Below, piece after piece: positions 13,521 through 56,918 of a DNA stretch of 64,000 bases. This DNA comes from Cytophagales bacterium (GTDB taxonomy: Bacteria > Bacteroidota > Bacteroidia > Cytophagales > Microscillaceae), in contig JAAFJG010000003.1 of the NCBI GenBank assembly GCA_013298075.1, forward strand, positions 1-64,000, written 5' to 3'. The notes under the pieces are model-generated. The model searched no databases, was not told the origin of the DNA, and saw only the letters and a list, made by a program, of their open reading frames with translations. Position numbers and translations under genes: made by a program. Numbering within the stretch: position 1 is the stretch's first letter; the number at the start of each line of letters is the position of its first letter.

Positions 13521-15728
13521 TTAAATTTTGATGCCCATCAGTGTAATATCATCTCTTTGAGTGGCATTTTGTTGATGGTCATTTAATTTTTTTTCGAGCA
13601 TAATTTTTTGGTCTTTCAAAGACAAATAAGCAGAATTTCGTAAAAATTCTTTGAGTTGTGTACTGCCAATTCTTTTCTTTTTAGGATTGGCTTGGTCTGC
13701 ATATCCATCGCTTGCTAAATAAATATTGCTACCAATTTTTAGATTTAATTCTTGATTTTGATAATATTTTTCTCTACTTCCTGCAAATCCAATCGGTTCA
13801 GAAGTACCAATAACTTCTATCAGTTCCAATTCTTTATCTTCTTTTTTCTCCTCTACAATCCAGAGTGGTCTTTTTGCTCCTGCATATACTAATTGTACAC
13901 TTTGTTCCAAATATTGAAATCTACAAAGAGCAACCTCCATACCAATAGCAATATTTTCTGTTTGTCTTTCGATAATATTTCCCAACCCTTCATTCAATAA
14001 ATGTAATATTTGTGCGGGAGAATAAATATGTTGTTGATTGATAATTTCATTCAATAAAGTATGCCCAATCATAGTCATTAATCCACCAGAAACGCCATGA
14101 CCTGTGCAATCTACCACCGCCACAAATTTATATTTATCTAATTTTGCTACCCAATAAAAATCGCCAGAAACAACATCTTTTGGTTTAGAAATAATAAAAT
14201 AATCGCTTAAAATTTGTTGAATTTTATCATCGGGAGGTAAAATAGATTGCTGAATTGTTTCTGCATATCGAATACTATCTGTGATTTTGATATAAGTTCT
14301 TTCTAATTGATTAGATTTTTCTTCTAATAAATCACTTTTGGTTTCTAATTCTGTTTTTTGTTGTTGAATTTCTAAATTTCTTTGCCTTAATTGTTCATTT
14401 CTGAGTCTAATATCTCTGCGACTTTTATAAATTACGTACAAAAATCCACCTGCTAAAATCAACATCAAAACAGACACAATATTAATCACAAATTGTAATC
14501 TTACATTTCTTTCTAATTCTTGTCTTTGTTTATTTTCTATTTTTTCATTTTCAGCTTTGGCTGCGATAATTTCTTTTTGAATTTTTGATTCTCTATCTTT
14601 TATATCATATCCTAATCGACTTTGAATATCAGAAAAAGCAAAAACTTCGCTTTCATTATACAAAGAATCATGATAAGCTTTGAATAATTTGAAATTTTGA
14701 AAGGCAAATACTTGATTATTATTGGCTTCGTGTGCCAACGCCAATTTTTGATAACTATCTCTAATAATTTTTTTAGAATTGAGTTCTTTGGCAATTTGAA
14801 GGCTTTTAAAATAATGATCTATTGCTTTTGGGTATGTTTTGATGCGCATATATACATCACCAATACCAATATAACTAACGGCTGTTCCTTCGTTATAATG
14901 TGCATTTTCGTATAATTTTCGTGCTTCTAAATATAAAACTAATACTTCATTGGGCGAATATCCTGTCAGATTATAAATATTTGCTTTCCCTATCAAATTA
15001 CGGGCTAGTTCGCGTGAATTATTGGGCATTCTTCTAAAAATAATCTCTCCTTTTTTATAATATTCTAAACCCGTATTTAATAATTTTTTGCTTACAAACC
15101 ATTCTCCTATATTCGTTTGACAAGTCGCAATCAATAATTGATCTTGTAAATCGGTTGCCATTTTGAGGGCTTGGTCATAATTATCTTTGGCTAGATTATA
15201 ATTTTTAGCACTAAAATAAGTTTCACCTATCCACGTCAAACTGATAGCAATTTCTTGTTTAGCATCTATTGATTCAAATAATTTGATACTTTCTTGATAT
15301 TGTACGAGGGCTTGTTGATAATTTCCGAGATTATGATAAGTTCTTCCTATCAATCTAATGGCGGTTGCTTCTCCTTTTCTATTGCCTTTTTCTTTAGAAA
15401 ATTTGGCAGAACGAACAAAATATTCTAAGGCTTTTTGGTATTTTTCTAAGGCATAATACGCTTTGGCAATTTGAATCAAAGCCTCACCAATTCCTATATT
15501 AAAATTACTTTTTTCCGCAATCAAAAGTGCTTGTTGTGCATATAATAATGACCTTTCTGTTAAATTATCTAAAATACTTTTAGACATCATTATCAGTTTA
15601 CGTGCTTTTTCGTTTTCAGAATTATTATCTTTTTTTAATAGCACTTCCAAACTATCTTTCGAAGTTTTTTGGGCTATTAGATAATTTTGAGCAAGAAAAA
15701 ATAAAAATAAAATAAATAGAAAACGCAT
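13521..15728 (-). CDS. TPR-SpoIIE serine phosphatase (membrane-anchored)
   Basis: 735 residues. Order: a signal peptide (1-20), a periplasmic TPR array (about 40-380), a transmembrane segment (NIVSVLMLILAGGFLYVIY, about 410-432), a coiled coil (435-490), then a cytoplasmic PP2C/SpoIIE phosphatase. The metal-binding acidic residues are present in VVSGDFYW, VVDCTGHGVSGG and LASDGYADQ. It probably senses an extracytoplasmic signal through the TPRs and dephosphorylates a protein partner. It has the same architecture as the 53682-55703 protein but no SiaB/SiaC genes next to it, so its partner is unknown. A -7 box lies just upstream. Confidence 0.85.
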   Translation of the reverse strand: MRFLFILFLFFLAQNYLIAQKTSKDSLEVLLKKDNNSENEKARKLIMMSKSILDNLTERSLLYAQQALLIAEKSNFNIGIGEALIQIAKAYYALEKYQKALEYFVRSAKFSKEKGNRKGEATAIRLIGRTYHNLGNYQQALVQYQESIKLFESIDAKQEIAISLTWIGETYFSAKNYNLAKDNYDQALKMATDLQDQLLIATCQTNIGEWFVSKKLLNTGLEYYKKGEIIFRRMPNNSRELARNLIGKANIYNLTGYSPNEVLVLYLEARKLYENAHYNEGTAVSYIGIGDVYMRIKTYPKAIDHYFKSLQIAKELNSKKIIRDSYQKLALAHEANNNQVFAFQNFKLFKAYHDSLYNESEVFAFSDIQSRLGYDIKDRESKIQKEIIAAKAENEKIENKQRQELERNVRLQFVINIVSVLMLILAGGFLYVIYKSRRDIRLRNEQLRQRNLEIQQQKTELETKSDLLEEKSNQLERTYIKITDSIRYAETIQQSILPPDDKIQQILSDYFIISKPKDVVSGDFYWVAKLDKYKFVAVVDCTGHGVSGGLMTMIGHTLLNEIINQQHIYSPAQILHLLNEGLGNIIERQTENIAIGMEVALCRFQYLEQSVQLVYAGAKRPLWIVEEKKEDKELELIEVIGTSEPIGFAGSREKYYQNQELNLKIGSNIYLASDGYADQANPKKKRIGSTQLKEFLRNSAYLSLKDQKIMLEKKLNDHQQNATQRDDITLMGIKI

Positions 15729-47618: not shown

Positions 47619-50600
47619 TTATTCCAAACTTACTTGCGGCAACTTTTCTATAATATCCAAACTTGCCAAACTAAGATGAATAACGCTCAAAAGTAAATCG
47701 AAAATATACTTCGGATTTTCACACTCTGAAGCCCAATCATTCGGATTATTATCTATTTTGCTTTCTTTGTGTTGTGTAATTTGGTAACGTTCCATAATCC
47801 ATTCTATAGCACTTTTGCCATTGACTACATACTCATAAGCACGCAAAGGTATATTTTGAATACTAATTTGACTATTGTAATCTATTATACTTTTGTCAGT
47901 TTCTTTATCTTTTTTAGCAAAACGCATTTTATAGACTTTGTAATCTACCAAAAGACCTTCTTTGATATACAAAACTAATTCTTTTGGCTTAGGATGATGC
48001 TCATATTCTAAATGCAACTTCGCTAATTGCTTGCCCGCTTGACTAAATGCCCAAAAATCCTTCCCATCTTCTACCAAAGGCAAACGAGGTAACATCTTTT
48101 TTAAGTCATTAGCAAAAGTCTCTTTGTAGTGCGGACTATGCAAAAAACCATATACATAATAAAATATATCCTCTTTTTGTACCAAATTACCATACGTACC
48201 ACGCGCCTGACCTAATACAAAATCCGAAATGCCATCTCTGCGAACATATTCCTTCATATTTTTATCAAATATATTATGCTGCTCTTTTTTTACCTCCTCA
48301 TAATAATACAAAGGAAAACATTGAGAAACTGACACAATACCTAAATCAGGAATAATATTTGAGATTAATACCGAAAAATCTTTCGTATTACCAAGCCCAG
48401 AAACACAAATTAATTGATTTTCTAATGTAGTATTCGGAAAAAGTTGCCTATGAATACCAGGACGTTCTATAAAAGGATTATCAAAATATAAATTTTGTTT
48501 ACAAAAAGGACGATAATGACCTGCTATTATGTATTTACTATCAAAAGAATGATTTTTATTTCTATGAATATCATTTTTCAAATTCACTGTCCAGCTTATT
48601 TTGATAGGATTAGTGTCTATGAGATTTTGGACTTCTATATTTTTATTTTCTTTTTTTGCGTTGGCAAATGTTTTTTGCTGTTCGTTATAAAAATCTATCA
48701 TTCTTTTCATATTATTTTCCAAATTATTTTTTGAAAAATTATATACCCATGCATCTCTATTGCTGACCATTCCGATAGCATACGTATTAAAAAATGCGTT
48801 ACTTTTTTTATCCAATTTTTTTTCGGGTGCGAGTGGTAAAAAAGTTTCAAATCCTTCGTTTCTTTTGGCAATCCAGTCGCCTTTTTCGTTGGGTTCGAGT
48901 GTTTGTAGGGCTAGATTTTTGATACTTTTTTGGTCTTCGAGTATTTTTAGTTTTTGTTCTCTGTTATGATAGTCGCCAATATCATAATAAAAAATTTGTG
49001 TTTTTTCTGTATTTTTATGTGGATTTTTGACTAGAAATGTAAGGCTTACGGGTGTTCGTGAGCCTGAGCCAAATATTTTTCCACCTTCTTTTCTGCTTAG
49101 TTCACCGCTTGTTCGTTGGTTTCCTCTTAAATTAAATACATAAATACTTGAAAATTCTTTGGTTATGGTTTTTCGGAATCCGTCTGCACTATTGCTATCG
49201 AGCCATGCGCCGTTGGTTACAAAGGCAATAATTCCGCCATTTTCTTGGTCTAGTCTATCAGAAGCCCATCTGAATGCTTTTATATATGAGTCATAATTTG
49301 ATTTATTAAGTCCTGAGTTTGAGGCGTTTGCATAAGTTTGGTCGATTCTGCTATCGAGTTGTTCATATTTTTGGTTTTGTGCGTTATCGTTGGCAGATTT
49401 TTGTCCTACTGAGTAAGGTGGGTTTCCTATTATAATTCGGAGTGGTGCGTTTTTTTGTGCTTGTATTTTGGCGTTATTTTCTTGTAAATAGTCTGGGAAT
49501 AATTGATTTGTTTCTTTTTCAGAGAGTTGGAAAGTATCTGTGAGTACAATTCCCTCAAAAGGTGCGTATTCTTTTTGGTTATTGAGGTCAAAGAAAGTAG
49601 TTTCCATGTTGATGGCGGCTATATAATAGGCGAGTAATACTATTTCGTTTGCGTGGAGTTCGTTTTTAAATTTTCGGTGTAAGTCTTGTTGTTTTATGAG
49701 TCCGCTTTGTAGCAATCTGACCATGAAAGTACCTGTTCCTGCGAATGGGTCTAGGATATGTATATTTTGGTCTGTTATACTTCTATTAAATTCTGTTTGG
49801 AGTATATTTTCTACTGAGTGGATAATAAAATCGACTACTTCTGTGGGTGTGTAGACGATGCCGAGTTTTTCGACCATTTTAGGGAATGCATTTTTAAAAA
49901 ATTTGTCATAAAGTTCGATGATTATTTTTTGTTTTCCTTTTGCGTTGTCTATTCCTTCGGCTCTTTTTTTAACTGAGTCATAAAATTTTTGGAGTATTTC
50001 TGTATCTTTTTCGAGTGTTTGGTTTTCGAGTGTTTCTATCATTTTTTGCATTGATGTAGAAACGGGGTTATTTTTGACGAATGAATATTCTTGAAACAAG
50101 GCATCGAACACTGGTTTTGTGATAAGATGTTGTGCGAGCATTTCGATGGCTTCTGTTTGTGAGATAGCGGGGTTTATATTTTTGCGTAGTCCGCCTAAAA
50201 ATTGGTGAAAAGCATTTTTTTGAATTTCTTTTGTGTTGATAAAGTGTGTTATTTTTTCGATATATTTTTCGGCTATAATGGCTACATCTTTTGCCCATTG
50301 TTCCCAATATCTTCTGTCTCCTACTTTTGTAACTATTTTAGCAAATATATATTTTTGTAATTCTTTAAAATGTATTGCTAATTGGTCTTTTAATTTTTTT
50401 GTCGCTTCTTCGTCTGGTTTTTTGTTACCTTCGGTATTTGTTTCGACTACGTGTATTTTAGATGGTTTTTTTTCGTTGAGTTCAATTTGATTGATAGTTG
50501 TATTAAATGTTTCATCATGCGCTCTGAGTGCATTGAGTACGTCCCAAACTATTTTATATCTTTTGTTATCATCGAGTGCTTGGTCTGGTGCTATATCAAA

Positions 50601-52469
50601 AGGAATAACGATAGGAATAATAATGTATCCGTATTTTTTGTTGGGTGCTTTTCTCATCACACGTCCTACAGATTGTACTACGTCTATATGGGAGTCACGT
50701 GAGGCTAAAAAAATGACTGCGTCAAGTGCTGGCACGTCAATTCCTTCGCTTAGGCATCTTGCATTGGTTAATATTCTACATTCGTTGTCTGCGGGTTTTT
50801 TTAGCCATTGTAATTTTTGTTCTCTTTCATTTATTTGCATTTGACCGTCTACGTGTTGTGCATTTACGTTTACTAATTTTTCTTTTTTTTCGGTGGTAAC
50901 TTCTTCGTAATATACGTTTTTTAGGTCATTAAATAGTTTGGTAACATTTTTTGAGTCTTTTATTCTTGAGGCGAAAGCGACTGCGGTTTTCATGGGTTGC
51001 GGGTCTGAGTTGGCTATTGTTCCATCATCTCCTATTACCTGTTTCGAGAATGCATTGATACAACCGATAAGTTTTGCGGTTATTTCGGTGTCTATTTCGT
51101 TATTTTCGTTGGCGATCATTTCTTGTACTTTTTGGGGTATTTCATTTTCATTGAGCGTAAGTATCAATACTTTGTATTCAGTGAGCAATCCTCTTTCGAC
51201 TGCTTCTCCAAATCCGATTCTATACATTTCTTTTCCGTAAATGGTTTCGTCGTCCATTGAGCATAAAACGGCATCATATCTATTTGCTTTTGATTTAGCA
51301 CTATCGCCATATAATTTTGGGGTTGCTGTCATATAAATTCTTTTTTTTGCTTTCAAAAAGTTATTATCGTGTACTTTTATAAAGGCTGATTCGTCTTCGT
51401 TGGCAAGTTTTATGCCTGATGTTCTGTGTGCTTCGTCACAAATAATAAGGTCAAAGACTCCAAAATTTTTATTTTGTTTTAATAATTCTTTTTGTGCTTC
51501 TGCTATGACGTGTATAGATTGATAGGTAGAAAAGACGACGGTCATACCTTCATTTTTATTTATTTTTTTGATAAACTCAAATTGCCTTAAAATAGTATCT
51601 ATTTTGGTAGATGCGGGGAGTGCTAGGTCGATTGTACTAATATCTCCTTCATCGTTTTGATTTTTTTTTGTACTTACATTTGCGTCTGAGCATATACAAA
51701 TAGCATTAATTTTAGTTTCGCTTTCTGCGCTCCATTCTCTGAGTGTTTGTCCTAATAAAGCAATAGATGGAACGAGAAATAAAATAAGTCCTTTTTTATT
51801 GGTTTCATTTTCGGCTATTTTTAGGGAGGTAAATGTTTTTCCTGTACCACAAGCCATAATAAGTTTTCCTCTATCATTGGTTTTGAGATATTCATTTGTT
51901 TTTTGGAGTGCAAAATTTTGATGTTCAAAGAGTATTTTTTTTGTTATTCTTGCTTCTTCGCCTTTCATTCCTTTGTCTAATTTTTCCCAGTCAATAGGTG
52001 CATTAATTAGTTGGTATAAACTTATTCTTTGAAATGGGATAGTAAGGTTTTTAACTACTTCTTCTGCATTTTTTCCAAATTCTTTTCCTGTGGTATCTAC
52101 CCAAAGTCGAGTTACAAATTTGTTTCTTTGTAGATTTGCATCTATAAATTCTCTTCCTGAAGTAGCCAAAAAACTATCGATGGCTGGTTTATCTATGGTT
52201 GTTCCTTCGGCAAAAAATTTACATTGTATTGCCCAATAATCACCGTTGTATAATTGTGCTACCAAATCAATGCCTGTATCTACTCCACCGAGTTCGGTTC
52301 GGGCTGGAAATTCATTCCAGAGCCAAATTTTTTCGAATTGATTGGCGTATAGAGGGTCTGTTTGTAGATAGTTTTTGATAAGTTGTTCAAATTTATTTCC
52401 TTTTTGTCTTTGAGACAAAGATTCTTCTCTGTATTTTTCTAATATGATATTGAAGTAGTTGGTACTCAT
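47619..52469 (-). CDS. single-chain ISP-type restriction-modification enzyme
   Basis: 1616 residues from the ATG at 52469, which gives MSTNYFNIIL; the longer upstream frame is AT-rich and would overlap the promoter. Order: an Mrr-like nuclease (D68 in GIDLVA, Q82-C-K84); an SF2 helicase with Walker A ACGTGKT (206-212) and DEAH (345-348); an N6-adenine methyltransferase with LDPFAGTGTF (906-915) and NPPY (1016-1019); then a target-recognition/ISP C-terminal region. Known relatives such as LlaBIII both methylate and cut, translocating along DNA. One gene therefore gives restriction, modification and specificity. It has its own promoter, and repeat A copies lie on both sides. Confidence 0.9.
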   Translation of the reverse strand: MSTNYFNIILEKYREESLSQRQKGNKFEQLIKNYLQTDPLYANQFEKIWLWNEFPARTELGGVDTGIDLVAQLYNGDYWAIQCKFFAEGTTIDKPAIDSFLATSGREFIDANLQRNKFVTRLWVDTTGKEFGKNAEEVVKNLTIPFQRISLYQLINAPIDWEKLDKGMKGEEARITKKILFEHQNFALQKTNEYLKTNDRGKLIMACGTGKTFTSLKIAENETNKKGLILFLVPSIALLGQTLREWSAESETKINAICICSDANVSTKKNQNDEGDISTIDLALPASTKIDTILRQFEFIKKINKNEGMTVVFSTYQSIHVIAEAQKELLKQNKNFGVFDLIICDEAHRTSGIKLANEDESAFIKVHDNNFLKAKKRIYMTATPKLYGDSAKSKANRYDAVLCSMDDETIYGKEMYRIGFGEAVERGLLTEYKVLILTLNENEIPQKVQEMIANENNEIDTEITAKLIGCINAFSKQVIGDDGTIANSDPQPMKTAVAFASRIKDSKNVTKLFNDLKNVYYEEVTTEKKEKLVNVNAQHVDGQMQINEREQKLQWLKKPADNECRILTNARCLSEGIDVPALDAVIFLASRDSHIDVVQSVGRVMRKAPNKKYGYIIIPIVIPFDIAPDQALDDNKRYKIVWDVLNALRAHDETFNTTINQIELNEKKPSKIHVVETNTEGNKKPDEEATKKLKDQLAIHFKELQKYIFAKIVTKVGDRRYWEQWAKDVAIIAEKYIEKITHFINTKEIQKNAFHQFLGGLRKNINPAISQTEAIEMLAQHLITKPVFDALFQEYSFVKNNPVSTSMQKMIETLENQTLEKDTEILQKFYDSVKKRAEGIDNAKGKQKIIIELYDKFFKNAFPKMVEKLGIVYTPTEVVDFIIHSVENILQTEFNRSITDQNIHILDPFAGTGTFMVRLLQSGLIKQQDLHRKFKNELHANEIVLLAYYIAAINMETTFFDLNNQKEYAPFEGIVLTDTFQLSEKETNQLFPDYLQENNAKIQAQKNAPLRIIIGNPPYSVGQKSANDNAQNQKYEQLDSRIDQTYANASNSGLNKSNYDSYIKAFRWASDRLDQENGGIIAFVTNGAWLDSNSADGFRKTITKEFSSIYVFNLRGNQRTSGELSRKEGGKIFGSGSRTPVSLTFLVKNPHKNTEKTQIFYYDIGDYHNREQKLKILEDQKSIKNLALQTLEPNEKGDWIAKRNEGFETFLPLAPEKKLDKKSNAFFNTYAIGMVSNRDAWVYNFSKNNLENNMKRMIDFYNEQQKTFANAKKENKNIEVQNLIDTNPIKISWTVNLKNDIHRNKNHSFDSKYIIAGHYRPFCKQNLYFDNPFIERPGIHRQLFPNTTLENQLICVSGLGNTKDFSVLISNIIPDLGIVSVSQCFPLYYYEEVKKEQHNIFDKNMKEYVRRDGISDFVLGQARGTYGNLVQKEDIFYYVYGFLHSPHYKETFANDLKKMLPRLPLVEDGKDFWAFSQAGKQLAKLHLEYEHHPKPKELVLYIKEGLLVDYKVYKMRFAKKDKETDKSIIDYNSQISIQNIPLRAYEYVVNGKSAIEWIMERYQITQHKESKIDNNPNDWASECENPKYIFDLLLSVIHLSLASLDIIEKLPQVSLE

Positions 52470-52905: not shown

Positions 52906-53295
52906 TTATATAATTTCTTCACAAGGGATCATTTCGAATTTAATATCAGAAAAGGAATTAAAATCTTCTCCCAAATCTTTCATATCCTCGTCTTCTTGTT
53001 CATAATACCATTGAATAACGATTTGTAAATTAGGATCATCACCTGATTCTAATTGCTTAATAATTCGTCCTAACACAGCCGAGGTACTTGTATTGACATA
53101 AATAAGTTTGAAAGCCATTTGAATTTTTTCGGGTCTTTCATCTCTCATATATGTTTCGATGGCTTCTAATATAGGGGCATAAAATTCTTCCGTATCTTCA
53201 GGAATAGATACGCCTTTGATTTCAAATTCACTTTTTTCGAAGTTAAGATGCACTTCTGGAGTGGTTGGTGATTCTTTTATAATAATATCTTCCAT
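52906..53295 (-). CDS. SiaC family regulatory phosphoprotein (paralogue 2)
   Basis: 129 residues, DUF1987. STAS-like fold with the phospho-acceptor region LIYVNTSTSAVL (T69 is the likely target). SiaC proteins switch partners depending on phosphorylation by SiaB and dephosphorylation by a SpoIIE-type phosphatase. It is the last gene of the leftward cluster 56918-52906. The sequence differs clearly from the 55853 paralogue, so each may have a different target. Confidence 0.85.
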   Translation of the reverse strand: MEDIIIKESPTTPEVHLNFEKSEFEIKGVSIPEDTEEFYAPILEAIETYMRDERPEKIQMAFKLIYVNTSTSAVLGRIIKQLESGDDPNLQIVIQWYYEQEDEDMKDLGEDFNSFSDIKFEMIPCEEII

Positions 53296-53336
53296 TTTTA
53301 ATAATATATATTTTTGTGTAAGTAGAATTTTTTATT

Positions 53337-53660
53337 TTATCTTATTTCTACTCCCTTTTTATTGCTTTGATTGATAATCACTAATTTTTGGAAAGATATA
53401 GATGAAAAACTTGCTTCTACTTCTTCCGAAAAAATTACTTTTCCTGTGATTAATTTTATTTTTCCGTTTTCATTGCGTAATATTTGGCTAATATGCAATG
53501 TTATTTTTTCTTCTTTCAATGTTGTTTTTAAATCGTCAATGTTTTTTTCAGTCATTGTATTGATAAGAAAAAACTTTACCTTTATTTCATCTAGATTTTC
53601 TGTTTTTAAACTTGAAAATAAAGAGATAAATAATACAAAAGTAATGATTAAATGTTTCAT
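53337..53660 (-). CDS. small exported hypothetical protein in the Sia cluster
   Basis: 107 residues with a signal-peptide-like N-terminus (MKHLIITFVLFISLFSSLK). The rest (KITLHISQILRNENGKIKLITGKVIFSEEVEASFSS) is small and beta-rich, of no recognised family. It lies 21 bases after the phosphatase gene and 41 before siaC-2, so it is part of the operon. Proximity suggests it could be a periplasmic input to the TPR domain of the phosphatase; that is an inference. Confidence 0.6.
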   Translation of the reverse strand: MKHLIITFVLFISLFSSLKTENLDEIKVKFFLINTMTEKNIDDLKTTLKEEKITLHISQILRNENGKIKLITGKVIFSEEVEASFSSISFQKLVIINQSNKKGVEIR

Positions 53661-53681
53661 TTTTAATTATTTTTTTTATGG

Positions 53682-55703
53682 TTAATTCATTGGATTCATT
53701 CTAAAACCTATGACCAAAATGTCATCCATTTGTCTATTTTCGCCCATCCAATCGATTAAAGTTTTATTTAAAATTTTTCTTTGTTCTTGCATTACCTCGT
53801 GATGATGTTCCAATAATAAATCATCTAAACGTTGCTTAGAAAATTTACGACCTTTTGGACCTCCAAACTGATCTTGAAATCCATCAGAAAATATATAAAA
53901 ACAAGTTGGTTTATCAATTTTTAACGTATATTTTTGAAAAACTCTTTCTCTATCTTTTTGAAAACCACCAATAGGCAATTTACAAGATTCATACGCTTGC
54001 ATTTGTCCATCTTGCACAAACAATAAAGGTCTAGCTGCCCCTGCATATTCCACCGTATTTTTTCGTGGGTCAATCACACACAAAGCCACGTCCATTCCAT
54101 CTTGATTTTTGGTTTCTTCTTGATTCAAAGCAGAGCCAATACTTTGGTGCAATTCATTCAAAATCCATTCTGGGTCTGTAATTCCTTGCAAATTGATGAC
54201 TTGATTTAAGTAAGAATCACCTAACATAGACATAATTGCGCCCGGAACTCCGTGACCTGTACAATCTAAAACAGCAATAAAAATTTTTCCGTGTTTATAC
54301 GCAAACCAATACAAATCACCTGAAACAATATCTCGAGGTCTGAATAATACAAAATAATCTTTCAAACCTTCGTTCATTTGTTGAGTAGTTGGCAATAGAG
54401 ATTCTTGTATTCTTTTGGCATAATTGATGCTGGCGGTAATATCTTTATTTTTCCTTTCGATTTCTTTAAAAGCAGCCTCTAATACATCATTTTTGCGGTT
54501 AATGGCTTCATTTTGTATTTCGATTTGATTTTTTCTTTCTTCTGATTCTTTATTTTTTCTTTCGATTTCGATTTTTTGTTGTTCTAGGGCAGATTTTTGT
54601 GCTTCTAAAACTACATTTTGTTGTTCAACGCCTAATTTTTGTGTGCCTAATAATTGATTTATTTTTACTTTTTGTCTATTATTTCTATATAAAAATACAA
54701 TCAAAACCAAAGCAGATATTACAAAAATAGTAGAAACCAAAATCAATAATTGTGAAATTCTATTTTGAGCGGTTAATAATTCTCTTTCTTGGGTTTGTTT
54801 TTTGATAATATCATCGGTTACTCTGATTACGTCTTGTGCGTCAGTTTGTTGGTCTTTAAAAATAGATTCTTTTAATTTAACGTATTCTTGATGATATTGA
54901 AATGCTTTTTTGTAGTCTTCTTGTGCTACATACAGTTGCGAAAGTCCTAAATATGCTCTTTGTAATTCTATTTTACTATTTTCTTTTTTTGCTTTAAATT
55001 CTTGTTGTTCATAACTTCTTCTTGCTTCATAATAATCTTTTAACTTAAAATAATTTTCTCCCAGGCGATATAAATTTGCGATAATTAATTTAGCATCTGG
55101 GATATTATCAGCAATTTCTAATGCCTGTTTATGATAACGAATGGCTTCATTGTAATTTCCTTCTTTATAATATACGACTCCTAAATTAGTCAAAGTATTG
55201 GCAATTCCTTTTTTATCTTTTAGTTTTTCTCTCAATACTAAAGATTTTTGAAAAGCTTCTACGGCTAATTCATTGTCACCTTTTACCACATAAGCTGTTC
55301 CAATTCGGTGATGTCCTTCTGCAATTCCTACTTCGTCGTTTGTATTTTGTCTTAATTTTAAGGCTCTGGTAAAATAATTAATTGCCATTTCAGGTTCACT
55401 ATTTTGTGTGAGATATAAATCACCCAAAAAATTAGCATTTTTTAATATTCCGTCGTTATATTTTTCATTTTCTGCTTCTTTGAGTGCTTGTTCGGCGAAT
55501 TTTTTTGCTTCTGCAGAATTTTTAGACAAATAAGTAGTAGCCAAACTATATAAAATATCAGATCTTTCCTTTCCTGTTTTTGCAGCACTTAATTTTTCAT
55601 TGAGTTCTTCTATATCGCTTTTGGGCAAAACTTTTGGGGTTTGTCCTGATGCGAAGGAAAAACAAAGGAAAAATAAAACTATAAAAACTAAAAAGTAACG
55701 CAT
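53682..55703 (-). CDS. TPR-SpoIIE phosphatase (SiaA-like role)
   Basis: 673 residues. Order: a signal peptide (1-21), TPRs (about 30-290; repeated GIA-T-LG-VYY-GNY-EAI patterns), one transmembrane helix (LLILVSTIFVISALVLIVFLY, about 322-343), a long coiled coil (345-425), and a PP2C/SpoIIE domain with acidic metal-binding residues in VSGDLYW, VLDCTGHGVPGA and IFSDGFQDQFGG. It takes the place of SiaA in the SiaABC system, but its sensor is a TPR array instead of the usual periplasmic/HAMP unit. Likely substrates are the two SiaC proteins. Confidence 0.88.
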   Translation of the reverse strand: MRYFLVFIVLFFLCFSFASGQTPKVLPKSDIEELNEKLSAAKTGKERSDILYSLATTYLSKNSAEAKKFAEQALKEAENEKYNDGILKNANFLGDLYLTQNSEPEMAINYFTRALKLRQNTNDEVGIAEGHHRIGTAYVVKGDNELAVEAFQKSLVLREKLKDKKGIANTLTNLGVVYYKEGNYNEAIRYHKQALEIADNIPDAKLIIANLYRLGENYFKLKDYYEARRSYEQQEFKAKKENSKIELQRAYLGLSQLYVAQEDYKKAFQYHQEYVKLKESIFKDQQTDAQDVIRVTDDIIKKQTQERELLTAQNRISQLLILVSTIFVISALVLIVFLYRNNRQKVKINQLLGTQKLGVEQQNVVLEAQKSALEQQKIEIERKNKESEERKNQIEIQNEAINRKNDVLEAAFKEIERKNKDITASINYAKRIQESLLPTTQQMNEGLKDYFVLFRPRDIVSGDLYWFAYKHGKIFIAVLDCTGHGVPGAIMSMLGDSYLNQVINLQGITDPEWILNELHQSIGSALNQEETKNQDGMDVALCVIDPRKNTVEYAGAARPLLFVQDGQMQAYESCKLPIGGFQKDRERVFQKYTLKIDKPTCFYIFSDGFQDQFGGPKGRKFSKQRLDDLLLEHHHEVMQEQRKILNKTLIDWMGENRQMDDILVIGFRMNPMN

Positions 55704-55852
55704 TTTTTATAAAAATAAAAGATAAGATAAATTATTCCAGACTAATATATAAGAAGGAATAAATTGAACAAGGAATTGAACAATAGACAAATAAATATTT
55801 TAGTGATAAAATAAAAAATAGATTTTATCACTAAAATAAATACAACAAAAAA

Positions 55853-56248
55853 TTAATCTTCAGGTTCGAAAGCAAACATATTGATTTTTAAACCTGTGTC
55901 TTTTGTATAGTCTTCTGCTTCTTCAGCAATACTATCATCATCTTCAGGATAATACCAATTTACGACTACTTGCCCACTATCATCTTCATATTTTTTTAAT
56001 ACACGCAAAATATTCAAGATACTTCTTGAGGAGCTTGTATTAAAATAAGTCAAACGGAAGTTAAAAGTAATTGTCTTTCTTACTTCTTTGATATAGTTTT
56101 CGAGCCATTGAATTAAATTGTTATAAAATTCGTCTGTATCTTCTAAATATGATTCGCCTGATATTTCACAGATACCAGAAGTAGCATTAAGTTTTACTTC
56201 AGGAATGAAATAAACGCCGCTTTCTCCTTTAATTTCGAGATTCTCCAT
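55853..56248 (-). CDS. SiaC family regulatory phosphoprotein (paralogue 1)
   Basis: 131 residues, DUF1987. FRLTYFNTSSSRSILNIL carries the likely phospho-threonine T71. It is 100 bases downstream of the kinase gene and so most probably the direct SiaB substrate. Acidic C-terminal tail. Confidence 0.85.
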   Translation of the reverse strand: MENLEIKGESGVYFIPEVKLNATSGICEISGESYLEDTDEFYNNLIQWLENYIKEVRKTITFNFRLTYFNTSSSRSILNILRVLKKYEDDSGQVVVNWYYPEDDDSIAEEAEDYTKDTGLKINMFAFEPED

Positions 56249-56348
56249 CTAATAGAATAAAAATTATATAATCTAAGTTTTAAAATAATTGCAAAAGTAA
56301 TAATAATTATTTGTTTTTTAGGTATAAATACAAAAAAATAAATAATTT

Positions 56349-56918
56349 TTATTCCGTTTCTTCTGTTGAGTGTTTAGGAACAGACACAAAAAGTGCATAA
56401 AAAGCAAATTCTCCTCCCGGTAATTCTTTAATTTTTACTTCCAAAGGTCCGCCTGCTGTCAAAGCTACTTGCACCAAACCGATCCCAGCCCCTTTACTTT
56501 CTTCTCCCTGCGGATCATTGCGTAGTTTACGTTTATATTCACGCAAAGCCTCTCTATCCAACGCATTGATAGTATTATATTTTTCTACCAATCTTGTCAC
56601 GGCATCTTTATAAACTAAATTACCTGTAATTAGTTTAAAGGAATCCTCTGTTTGCACAATCACCAAAGTCCCTACTTTGTCTTGATTGCCAAAATGATTG
56701 ACTTCTTTCGAATAATAAAGTACGTTTTGTGCTAATTCCATAAAAATAGCGAATACTTTTTTTCCAATTTTGGGACTTTCCTGTTGCAATTTCAAACGAA
56801 TATCGCGGCTAAATTCAGCCAACAGCACATCAGTAAGCGGTCCCTTATAAGATAAAATAATATTATCTTGGGTAATTTGAGAATGATACTCAAAAAAATT
56901 AAACTCCTTAGTAGTCAT
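56349..56918 (-). CDS. SiaB family protein kinase
   Basis: 189 residues, GHKL ATPase/kinase fold. N box in FAIFMELAQNVLYYSKE (about 56-72) and glycine-rich box in GAGIGLVQVAL; there is no phospho-accepting histidine domain. SiaB kinases phosphorylate a threonine in SiaC. First gene of the leftward cluster. Confidence 0.87.
   Translation of the reverse strand: MTTKEFNFFEYHSQITQDNIILSYKGPLTDVLLAEFSRDIRLKLQQESPKIGKKVFAIFMELAQNVLYYSKEVNHFGNQDKVGTLVIVQTEDSFKLITGNLVYKDAVTRLVEKYNTINALDREALREYKRKLRNDPQGEESKGAGIGLVQVALTAGGPLEVKIKELPGGEFAFYALFVSVPKHSTEETE

What the first reader, a model, noticed from the sequence alone, without database searches (positions are those of the whole stretch)
52906..56918. 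SiaB-SiaC-phosphatase cluster with two SiaC paralogues and a small exported partner
Seen: gene order siaB, siaC-1, TPR-SpoIIE phosphatase, a 107-residue exported protein, siaC-2, all on one strand. Known: in Pseudomonas, SiaA and SiaB set SiaC phosphorylation and SiaC controls the diguanylate cyclase SiaD. Here no GGDEF protein is present in the window and the phosphatase senses through extracytoplasmic TPRs. Inference: SiaC would control different targets, and two paralogues could branch the signal. The small exported protein might be the input ligand.
Basis: partly seen in the sequence, partly recalled or inferred. Interest (0 to 1): 0.6.

Follow-up and report, generated by a model that had tools for sequence, protein, structure and literature searches.

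The report
Dual-SiaC switch in c-di-GMP-free bacteria
A set of bacterial signalling genes known from Pseudomonas for switching on the messenger c-di-GMP is kept, with two copies of its switch protein SiaC, in a whole bacterial family that has no enzymes of the type that makes c-di-GMP, so the switch must control something else there; the small exported protein next to it is an unrelated, probably recent, insertion.

Summary
In detail: siaB, siaC-1, a TPR-TM-SpoIIE phosphatase, a 107-aa exported ORF and siaC-2 lie on the minus strand at 52906-56918. T71 (SiaC-1) and T69 (SiaC-2) align with phosphorylated T68 of P. aeruginosa SiaC.

Interpretation: partly supported. The block siaB-siaC1-phosphatase-siaC2 occurs in 13 of 15 genomes (10 of 11 genera) of this Microscillaceae-like family. 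The two SiaCs are separate ancient clades with different, internally conserved contact residues. All 15 genomes have SiaC (7-44 copies; here 14, plus 10 SiaB and 37 SpoIIE) and none has a GGDEF domain, so the output cannot be a SiaD-type cyclase.

New: SiaC-adjacent genes elsewhere in the phylum (GGDEF, histidine kinase, SpoIIE, stand-alone, membrane proteins) share an N-terminal stalk matching, in register, SiaD's two SiaC-docking motifs. Six GGDEF-free relatives carry it on a membrane protein beside siaC. The commonest other SiaC neighbour in the family is an ABC-2 transporter (11 of 15 genomes, including this one). Targets of the window's own two SiaCs remain unknown.

The parts
56349..56918 (-). 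siaB: SiaB-family Ser/Thr protein kinase (DUF6272), 189 aa; N-box E61-L-A-Q-N
   Evidence: Pfam DUF6272 2.9e-34; NCBIfam SiaB_fam_kinase over its cut-off; PDB 6kko SiaB 1.5e-21; E61
55853..56248 (-). siaC-1: SiaC switch protein, 131 aa
   Evidence: Pfam SiaC 3.1e-40; PDB SiaC 1.6e-14; orthologues average 81% identity; one clade
56036..56038 (-). codon of T71 of SiaC-1, equivalent of P. aeruginosa SiaC T68
53682..55703 (-). SpoIIE/PP2C phosphatase, 673 aa: N-terminal hydrophobic segment, TPRs, TM about residue 319, coiled coil, PP2C domain
   Evidence: Pfam TPR_12 1.3e-27, SpoIIE 3.4e-20; PDB SiaA-PP2C 1.3e-44 with the metal-site aspartates conserved; hydrophobic segments
53697..54293 (-). PP2C (SpoIIE) catalytic domain of the phosphatase
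53337..53660 (-). 107-aa exported ORF, an insertion found only in this genome's cluster; not judged part of the conserved module
   Evidence: absent from the other clusters; remote homologues elsewhere; low GC 0.235 against 0.31-0.36 for the neighbours
52906..53295 (-). siaC-2: second SiaC paralogue, 129 aa
   Evidence: Pfam SiaC 3.3e-36; PDB SiaC 8.3e-12; present in 13 of 15 family genomes; own clade 98/99
53089..53091 (-). codon of T69 of SiaC-2, equivalent of P. aeruginosa SiaC T68

Best explanation
This is a SiaB kinase / SiaC switch / SpoIIE phosphatase module that works without c-di-GMP. SiaB phosphorylates the Thr of the Y-x-N-T motif on SiaC-1, and probably on SiaC-2. A signal read by the extracytoplasmic TPRs activates the PP2C domain across the membrane; in many relatives a second SpoIIE phosphatase with another sensor, encoded just upstream of siaB, feeds in too. 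Dephosphorylated SiaC exposes its N-T-S face and binds targets encoded elsewhere. Because SiaC-1 and SiaC-2 have conserved but different contact residues, they most likely bind different targets, giving one kinase/phosphatase pair two outputs. Shown here: gene content, conservation, motif residues, absence of GGDEF. Inferred: enzymatic direction (from P. aeruginosa), specificity, two outputs. The targets of these two SiaCs are not known.
For: Gene order siaB-siaC1-phosphatase-siaC2 in 13 of 15 family genomes, 10 of 11 genera. GGDEF in 0 of 15 and SiaC in 15 of 15. Phosphosite and metal-site residues conserved (known roles from PMC7647112 and PMC8457831). SiaC-1 and SiaC-2 are two clades (97/93 and 98/99), 31% identical between groups, with different, internally conserved contact positions. 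Extra upstream phosphatases with GAF/PAS or propeller sensors in eight relatives. Other SiaCs of the phylum sit next to effectors that share one docking stalk with SiaD, and six GGDEF-free relatives have that stalk on a membrane protein beside siaC, so SiaC targets other than GGDEF are likely.
Against: No output gene is conserved beside this block, and no docking stalk was found in the own genome. That both SiaCs are substrates of this SiaB is assumed. SiaC-2 is less conserved (56% against 81%), as a modulator rather than an output might be. No binding or phosphorylation data.
Confidence: 0.6

Rival explanations
1. SiaC-2 is not a second output but a buffer: it competes with SiaC-1 for SiaB and the phosphatase, or acts back on the TPR phosphatase it is encoded beside, tuning one output carried by SiaC-1.
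For: siaC-2 directly follows the phosphatase gene in 13 genomes, evolves faster than SiaC-1, and no separate output gene accompanies it.
Against: SiaC-2 keeps its own set of contact residues within the clade, which suggests a specific partner; the phosphatase itself could be that partner.
Confidence: 0.25
2. The exported 107-aa protein is a dedicated input ligand or periplasmic partner of the TPR domain.
For: It is encoded between phosphatase and siaC-2 on the same strand, 21 and 41 bp from them, and has an N-terminal hydrophobic segment.
Against: Absent from all 12 other complete clusters although the TPR phosphatase is conserved there; homologues elsewhere are not beside siaC.
Confidence: 0.05
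3. The module does control c-di-GMP, through a GGDEF protein missed in the assembly or a divergent cyclase.
For: SiaC-1 falls in the tree clade that holds P. aeruginosa SiaC and the GGDEF-linked SiaCs.
Against: No GGDEF in 15 genomes, 12 of them at least 90% complete, while the same search rings in 8 of 14 control genomes; most SiaC positions that contact SiaD outside Y-x-N-T are changed in SiaC-1 and SiaC-2.
Confidence: 0.04

Closest known systems
SiaABCD of Pseudomonas aeruginosa (PMC7647112, PMC8457831)
   Same: SiaB kinase, SiaC with the Y-x-N-T site, PP2C domain closest to SiaA among solved structures
   Different: TPR sensor on the phosphatase, two SiaCs, no SiaD and no GGDEF protein in the genome or family
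SpoIIE-siaB-siaC-GGDEF operons of other lineages in the phylum (L081, L082)
   Same: Same kinase, switch and phosphatase families in one operon
   Different: siaC is followed by a stalk-GGDEF protein, which the window's family lacks
Partner-switching systems with STAS-domain antagonists (RsbU/RsbV/RsbW type)
   Same: PP2C phosphatase, GHKL-type kinase and a STAS-like switch protein phosphorylated at the start of helix 2 (from PMC7647112 and PMC8457831)
   Different: SiaC is its own Pfam family, SiaB is DUF6272, and no sigma-factor gene or RsbW was recognised beside the block

Membership tests
SiaB/SiaC module (subfamily level) | SiaC domain over the Pfam cut-off | tested here: met
   137 and 124 bits against 24.5
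SiaB/SiaC module (subfamily level) | SiaB-family kinase over the NCBIfam cut-off | tested here: met
   157.9 bits against 85
SiaB/SiaC module (subfamily level) | phosphoacceptor N-T on SiaC | tested here: met
   T71 and T69 on the T68 column; N and T invariant in both clades
SiaB/SiaC module (subfamily level) | SiaA-like PP2C domain with its metal-site aspartates | tested here: met
   6k4e 1.3e-44; GD, D-x-x-GHG, DG and DD motifs aligned
SiaABCD (equivalog level) | SiaA, SiaB and SiaC equivalog scores | tested here: not met
   208.6 of 700, 92.1 of 225, 71.4 and 85.7 of 150 bits
SiaABCD (equivalog level) | SiaD diguanylate cyclase as target | tested here: not met
   GGDEF in 0 of 15 genomes
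SiaABCD (equivalog level) | SiaB phosphorylates and the phosphatase dephosphorylates SiaC | not testable with these tools
   needs a biochemical assay

The most novel reading that the evidence does not exclude
SiaB/SiaC/SpoIIE is a general, c-di-GMP-independent phospho-switch network: many membrane and cytosolic phosphatase sensors converge on a set of SiaC adaptors, and SiaC reorganises diverse helical-stalk targets (histidine kinases, phosphatases, membrane proteins) and perhaps ABC-2 transporters; the cyclase SiaD is one specialised client. The window operon is the family's conserved two-output core.
Probability: 0.45. Interest if true: 0.78.

Novelty: new variant of a known kind. Interest (0 to 1): 0.6.

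Why it matters
SiaC has been studied as an activator of one diguanylate cyclase in Pseudomonas; the library searched holds no study of it elsewhere. Here is a family with 7-44 SiaCs per genome and no GGDEF domain. A sequence signature for SiaC docking turns 'what does SiaC control?' into a search: a protein with the stalk is a candidate client, and the siaC-linked stalk/membrane protein and the siaC-linked ABC-2 transporter can be tested directly.

Tried and rejected
Exported protein as module member or ligand: rejected; no Pfam or NCBIfam family and no solved relative; its AlphaFold model (3-sequence alignment, mean pLDDT 62) gives no PDB match at E 0.001 or better. Docking stalk in the own genome: two profiles, nothing convincing, best E 0.165 in a 76-aa frame. 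A shared output gene beside the window block: none recurs in relatives. SiaC-2 as a recent copy of SiaC-1: rejected by the tree. A strict regex for the docking motif in the Microscillaceae loci held at that time: no hit.

Full report
OBSERVATION. The five ORFs are at the stated coordinates on the minus strand. Pfam and NCBIfam place them as SiaB-family kinase, SiaC, TPR plus SpoIIE phosphatase, a small exported protein of no family, and SiaC. Against solved structures, SiaC-1 and SiaC-2 match P. aeruginosa SiaC (1.6e-14, 8.3e-12), SiaB matches the SiaB chain of the SiaB-SiaC entry 6kko (1.5e-21) and the phosphatase domain matches SiaA-PP2C (6k4e, 1.3e-44). T71 and T69 sit on the T68 site, and the metal-site aspartates named for SiaA in PMC7647112 have counterparts in the alignment.

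GENOME CONTEXT. The genome (4.71 Mb, 97.9% complete) holds 14 SiaC, 10 SiaB and 37 SpoIIE proteins and no GGDEF domain. Across the 15 genomes held for its family, GGDEF is found in none and SiaC in all, 7-44 copies. Contig lengths shared with titled records point to Microscillaceae, Cytophagales; this is an inference, since the window's own record is not named. In an even phylum sample of 247 genomes only 14 have SiaC (this genome included), while 134 have GGDEF, so the expansion is lineage-specific.

SYNTENY. The block siaB-siaC1-phosphatase-siaC2 is present in G000-G005, G007, G008 and G010-G014: 13 of 15 genomes, 10 of 11 genera. G006 has siaB-siaC1-phosphatase, and the stretch after its phosphatase holds no SiaC reading frame. 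For G009 (82% complete) the block was not in the region fetched, and it was not searched for further. In eight genomes a second SpoIIE phosphatase sits directly before siaB; the seven examined carry GAF/PAS or propeller/Y_Y_Y sensors, so the sensor side is exchangeable. The exported gene occurs only here: the other phosphatase-siaC2 gaps are 23-311 bp with no comparable ORF, and its two remote homologues (27% and 26% identity) lie away from siaC. Those homologues and its own signal-like start suggest that it is a real gene, but not a part of the module.

TWO SiaCs. SiaC-1 orthologues share 81% identity on average, SiaC-2 56%, and the two groups 31%. Each is one clade (97/93 and 98/99) and they lie far apart. 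All keep the N67-T68 equivalents. Most other residues that contact SiaD in PMC8457831 differ between the groups and are nearly fixed within SiaC-1 and largely fixed within SiaC-2. Inference: each has its own partner.

WHAT SiaC COULD BIND WHEN THERE IS NO SiaD. SiaC loci from other lineages of the phylum showed that the gene following siaC differs: GGDEF (L081, L082), histidine kinase (L079, L088), SpoIIE (L087), stand-alone 85-99 aa (L084, L085), membrane protein (L083). These share an N-terminal stalk ending in a motif like K-I-T-R-I-[SG]-D-x-x-Q-x-K-L. A profile of it picks up SiaD (7e6g) at both of its SiaC-binding motifs, in register with S50/Q54 and S82/D83/Q86 (residues from PMC8457831). 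That match alone is weak (E 0.015, and a designed coiled coil scores alike), so its weight rests on the register. Leave-one-out profiles recover every left-out effector at E 1.6e-11 or better, and every other protein listed at E up to 10 is also siaC-linked. That set was chosen by being next to siaC, so the independent test is the next one: in the 15 GGDEF-free genomes the profile finds six strong matches (4e-13 to 1e-18, and one at 5e-13 among them), each within about 200 bp of a siaC, on roughly 180-210 aa proteins with one TM segment. None is in the own genome, although its C82 siaC has the same contact residues as those stalk-linked SiaCs.

SECOND LINKED CANDIDATE. A census of 125 loci in 15 genomes shows that the most recurrent SiaC neighbour other than SiaB and SpoIIE is a 1.0-1.1 kaa protein with ABC_tran and ABC2_membrane domains (a TerB hit in L074 only), 112-449 bp from siaC on the same strand in 11 genomes including this one (contig C69, L029:9727-13152), and also in two genomes of another family of the order and, facing siaC from the other strand, in one of the class. 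No docking stalk was seen in it, so how it would be bound is open.

MECHANISM. Best supported: SiaB and the TPR phosphatase set the phosphorylation of two SiaC adaptors that bind targets other than a GGDEF protein, encoded elsewhere. Shown: genes, residues, conservation, absence of GGDEF. Inferred: enzymatic direction (from P. aeruginosa), specificity, two outputs. Main rival: SiaC-2 is a buffer or acts back on the phosphatase. The targets of the window's SiaCs remain the open point.

NOVELTY. A new variant of a known kind. The library holds no study of SiaC outside Pseudomonas that these searches could find; PMC8457831 itself suggests that DUF1987 proteins modulate adjacent proteins, which these data make concrete. 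The c-di-GMP-free setting, the conserved SiaC pair and the shared docking stalk are, as far as this library shows, undescribed; subscription journals and preprints were not searched.

Noticed in passing
L079, L081, L082, L083, L084, L085, L087, L088; L089-L094: Genes next to siaC share an N-terminal stalk with the SiaC-docking motif of SiaD on different output domains (GGDEF, histidine kinase, SpoIIE, stand-alone, membrane protein); no Pfam family covers it.
   Followed up: partly
L029:9727-13152 (own contig C69); L074:6042-9113; L195:852-4280: An ABC-2 transporter with fused ATPase (TerB hit in L074) follows siaC in 11 of 15 family genomes, usually as SpoIIE-siaB-siaC-transporter.
   Followed up: partly
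own contig C71 (L035:8830-9399); L044-L047, L049, L050: A close paralogue of the window's siaB (1e-79 in the own genome) stands without any siaC beside it and recurs in relatives, in L046, L049 and L050 apparently beside an enolase gene (by eye).
   Followed up: no
L083:5462-7339: A natural fusion of response-regulator receiver, SpoIIE and SiaB-like (DUF6272) domains directly upstream of siaC.
   Followed up: no
L165:5023-6570; own contig C107 (L034:14405-17014): PAS histidine kinases sit within 2-122 bp of a siaC in several family genomes; no docking stalk recognised.
   Followed up: partly
window 13521-15728 (-): A second SpoIIE phosphatase (735 aa, N-terminal and central hydrophobic segments) in the same window with no siaB or siaC beside it; one of 37 in the genome.
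   Followed up: no
window 47619-52469 (-): A 1616-aa protein with DEAH-helicase and NPPY-methylase motifs by eye, like a single-chain restriction-modification enzyme, lies downstream of siaC-2.
   Followed up: no
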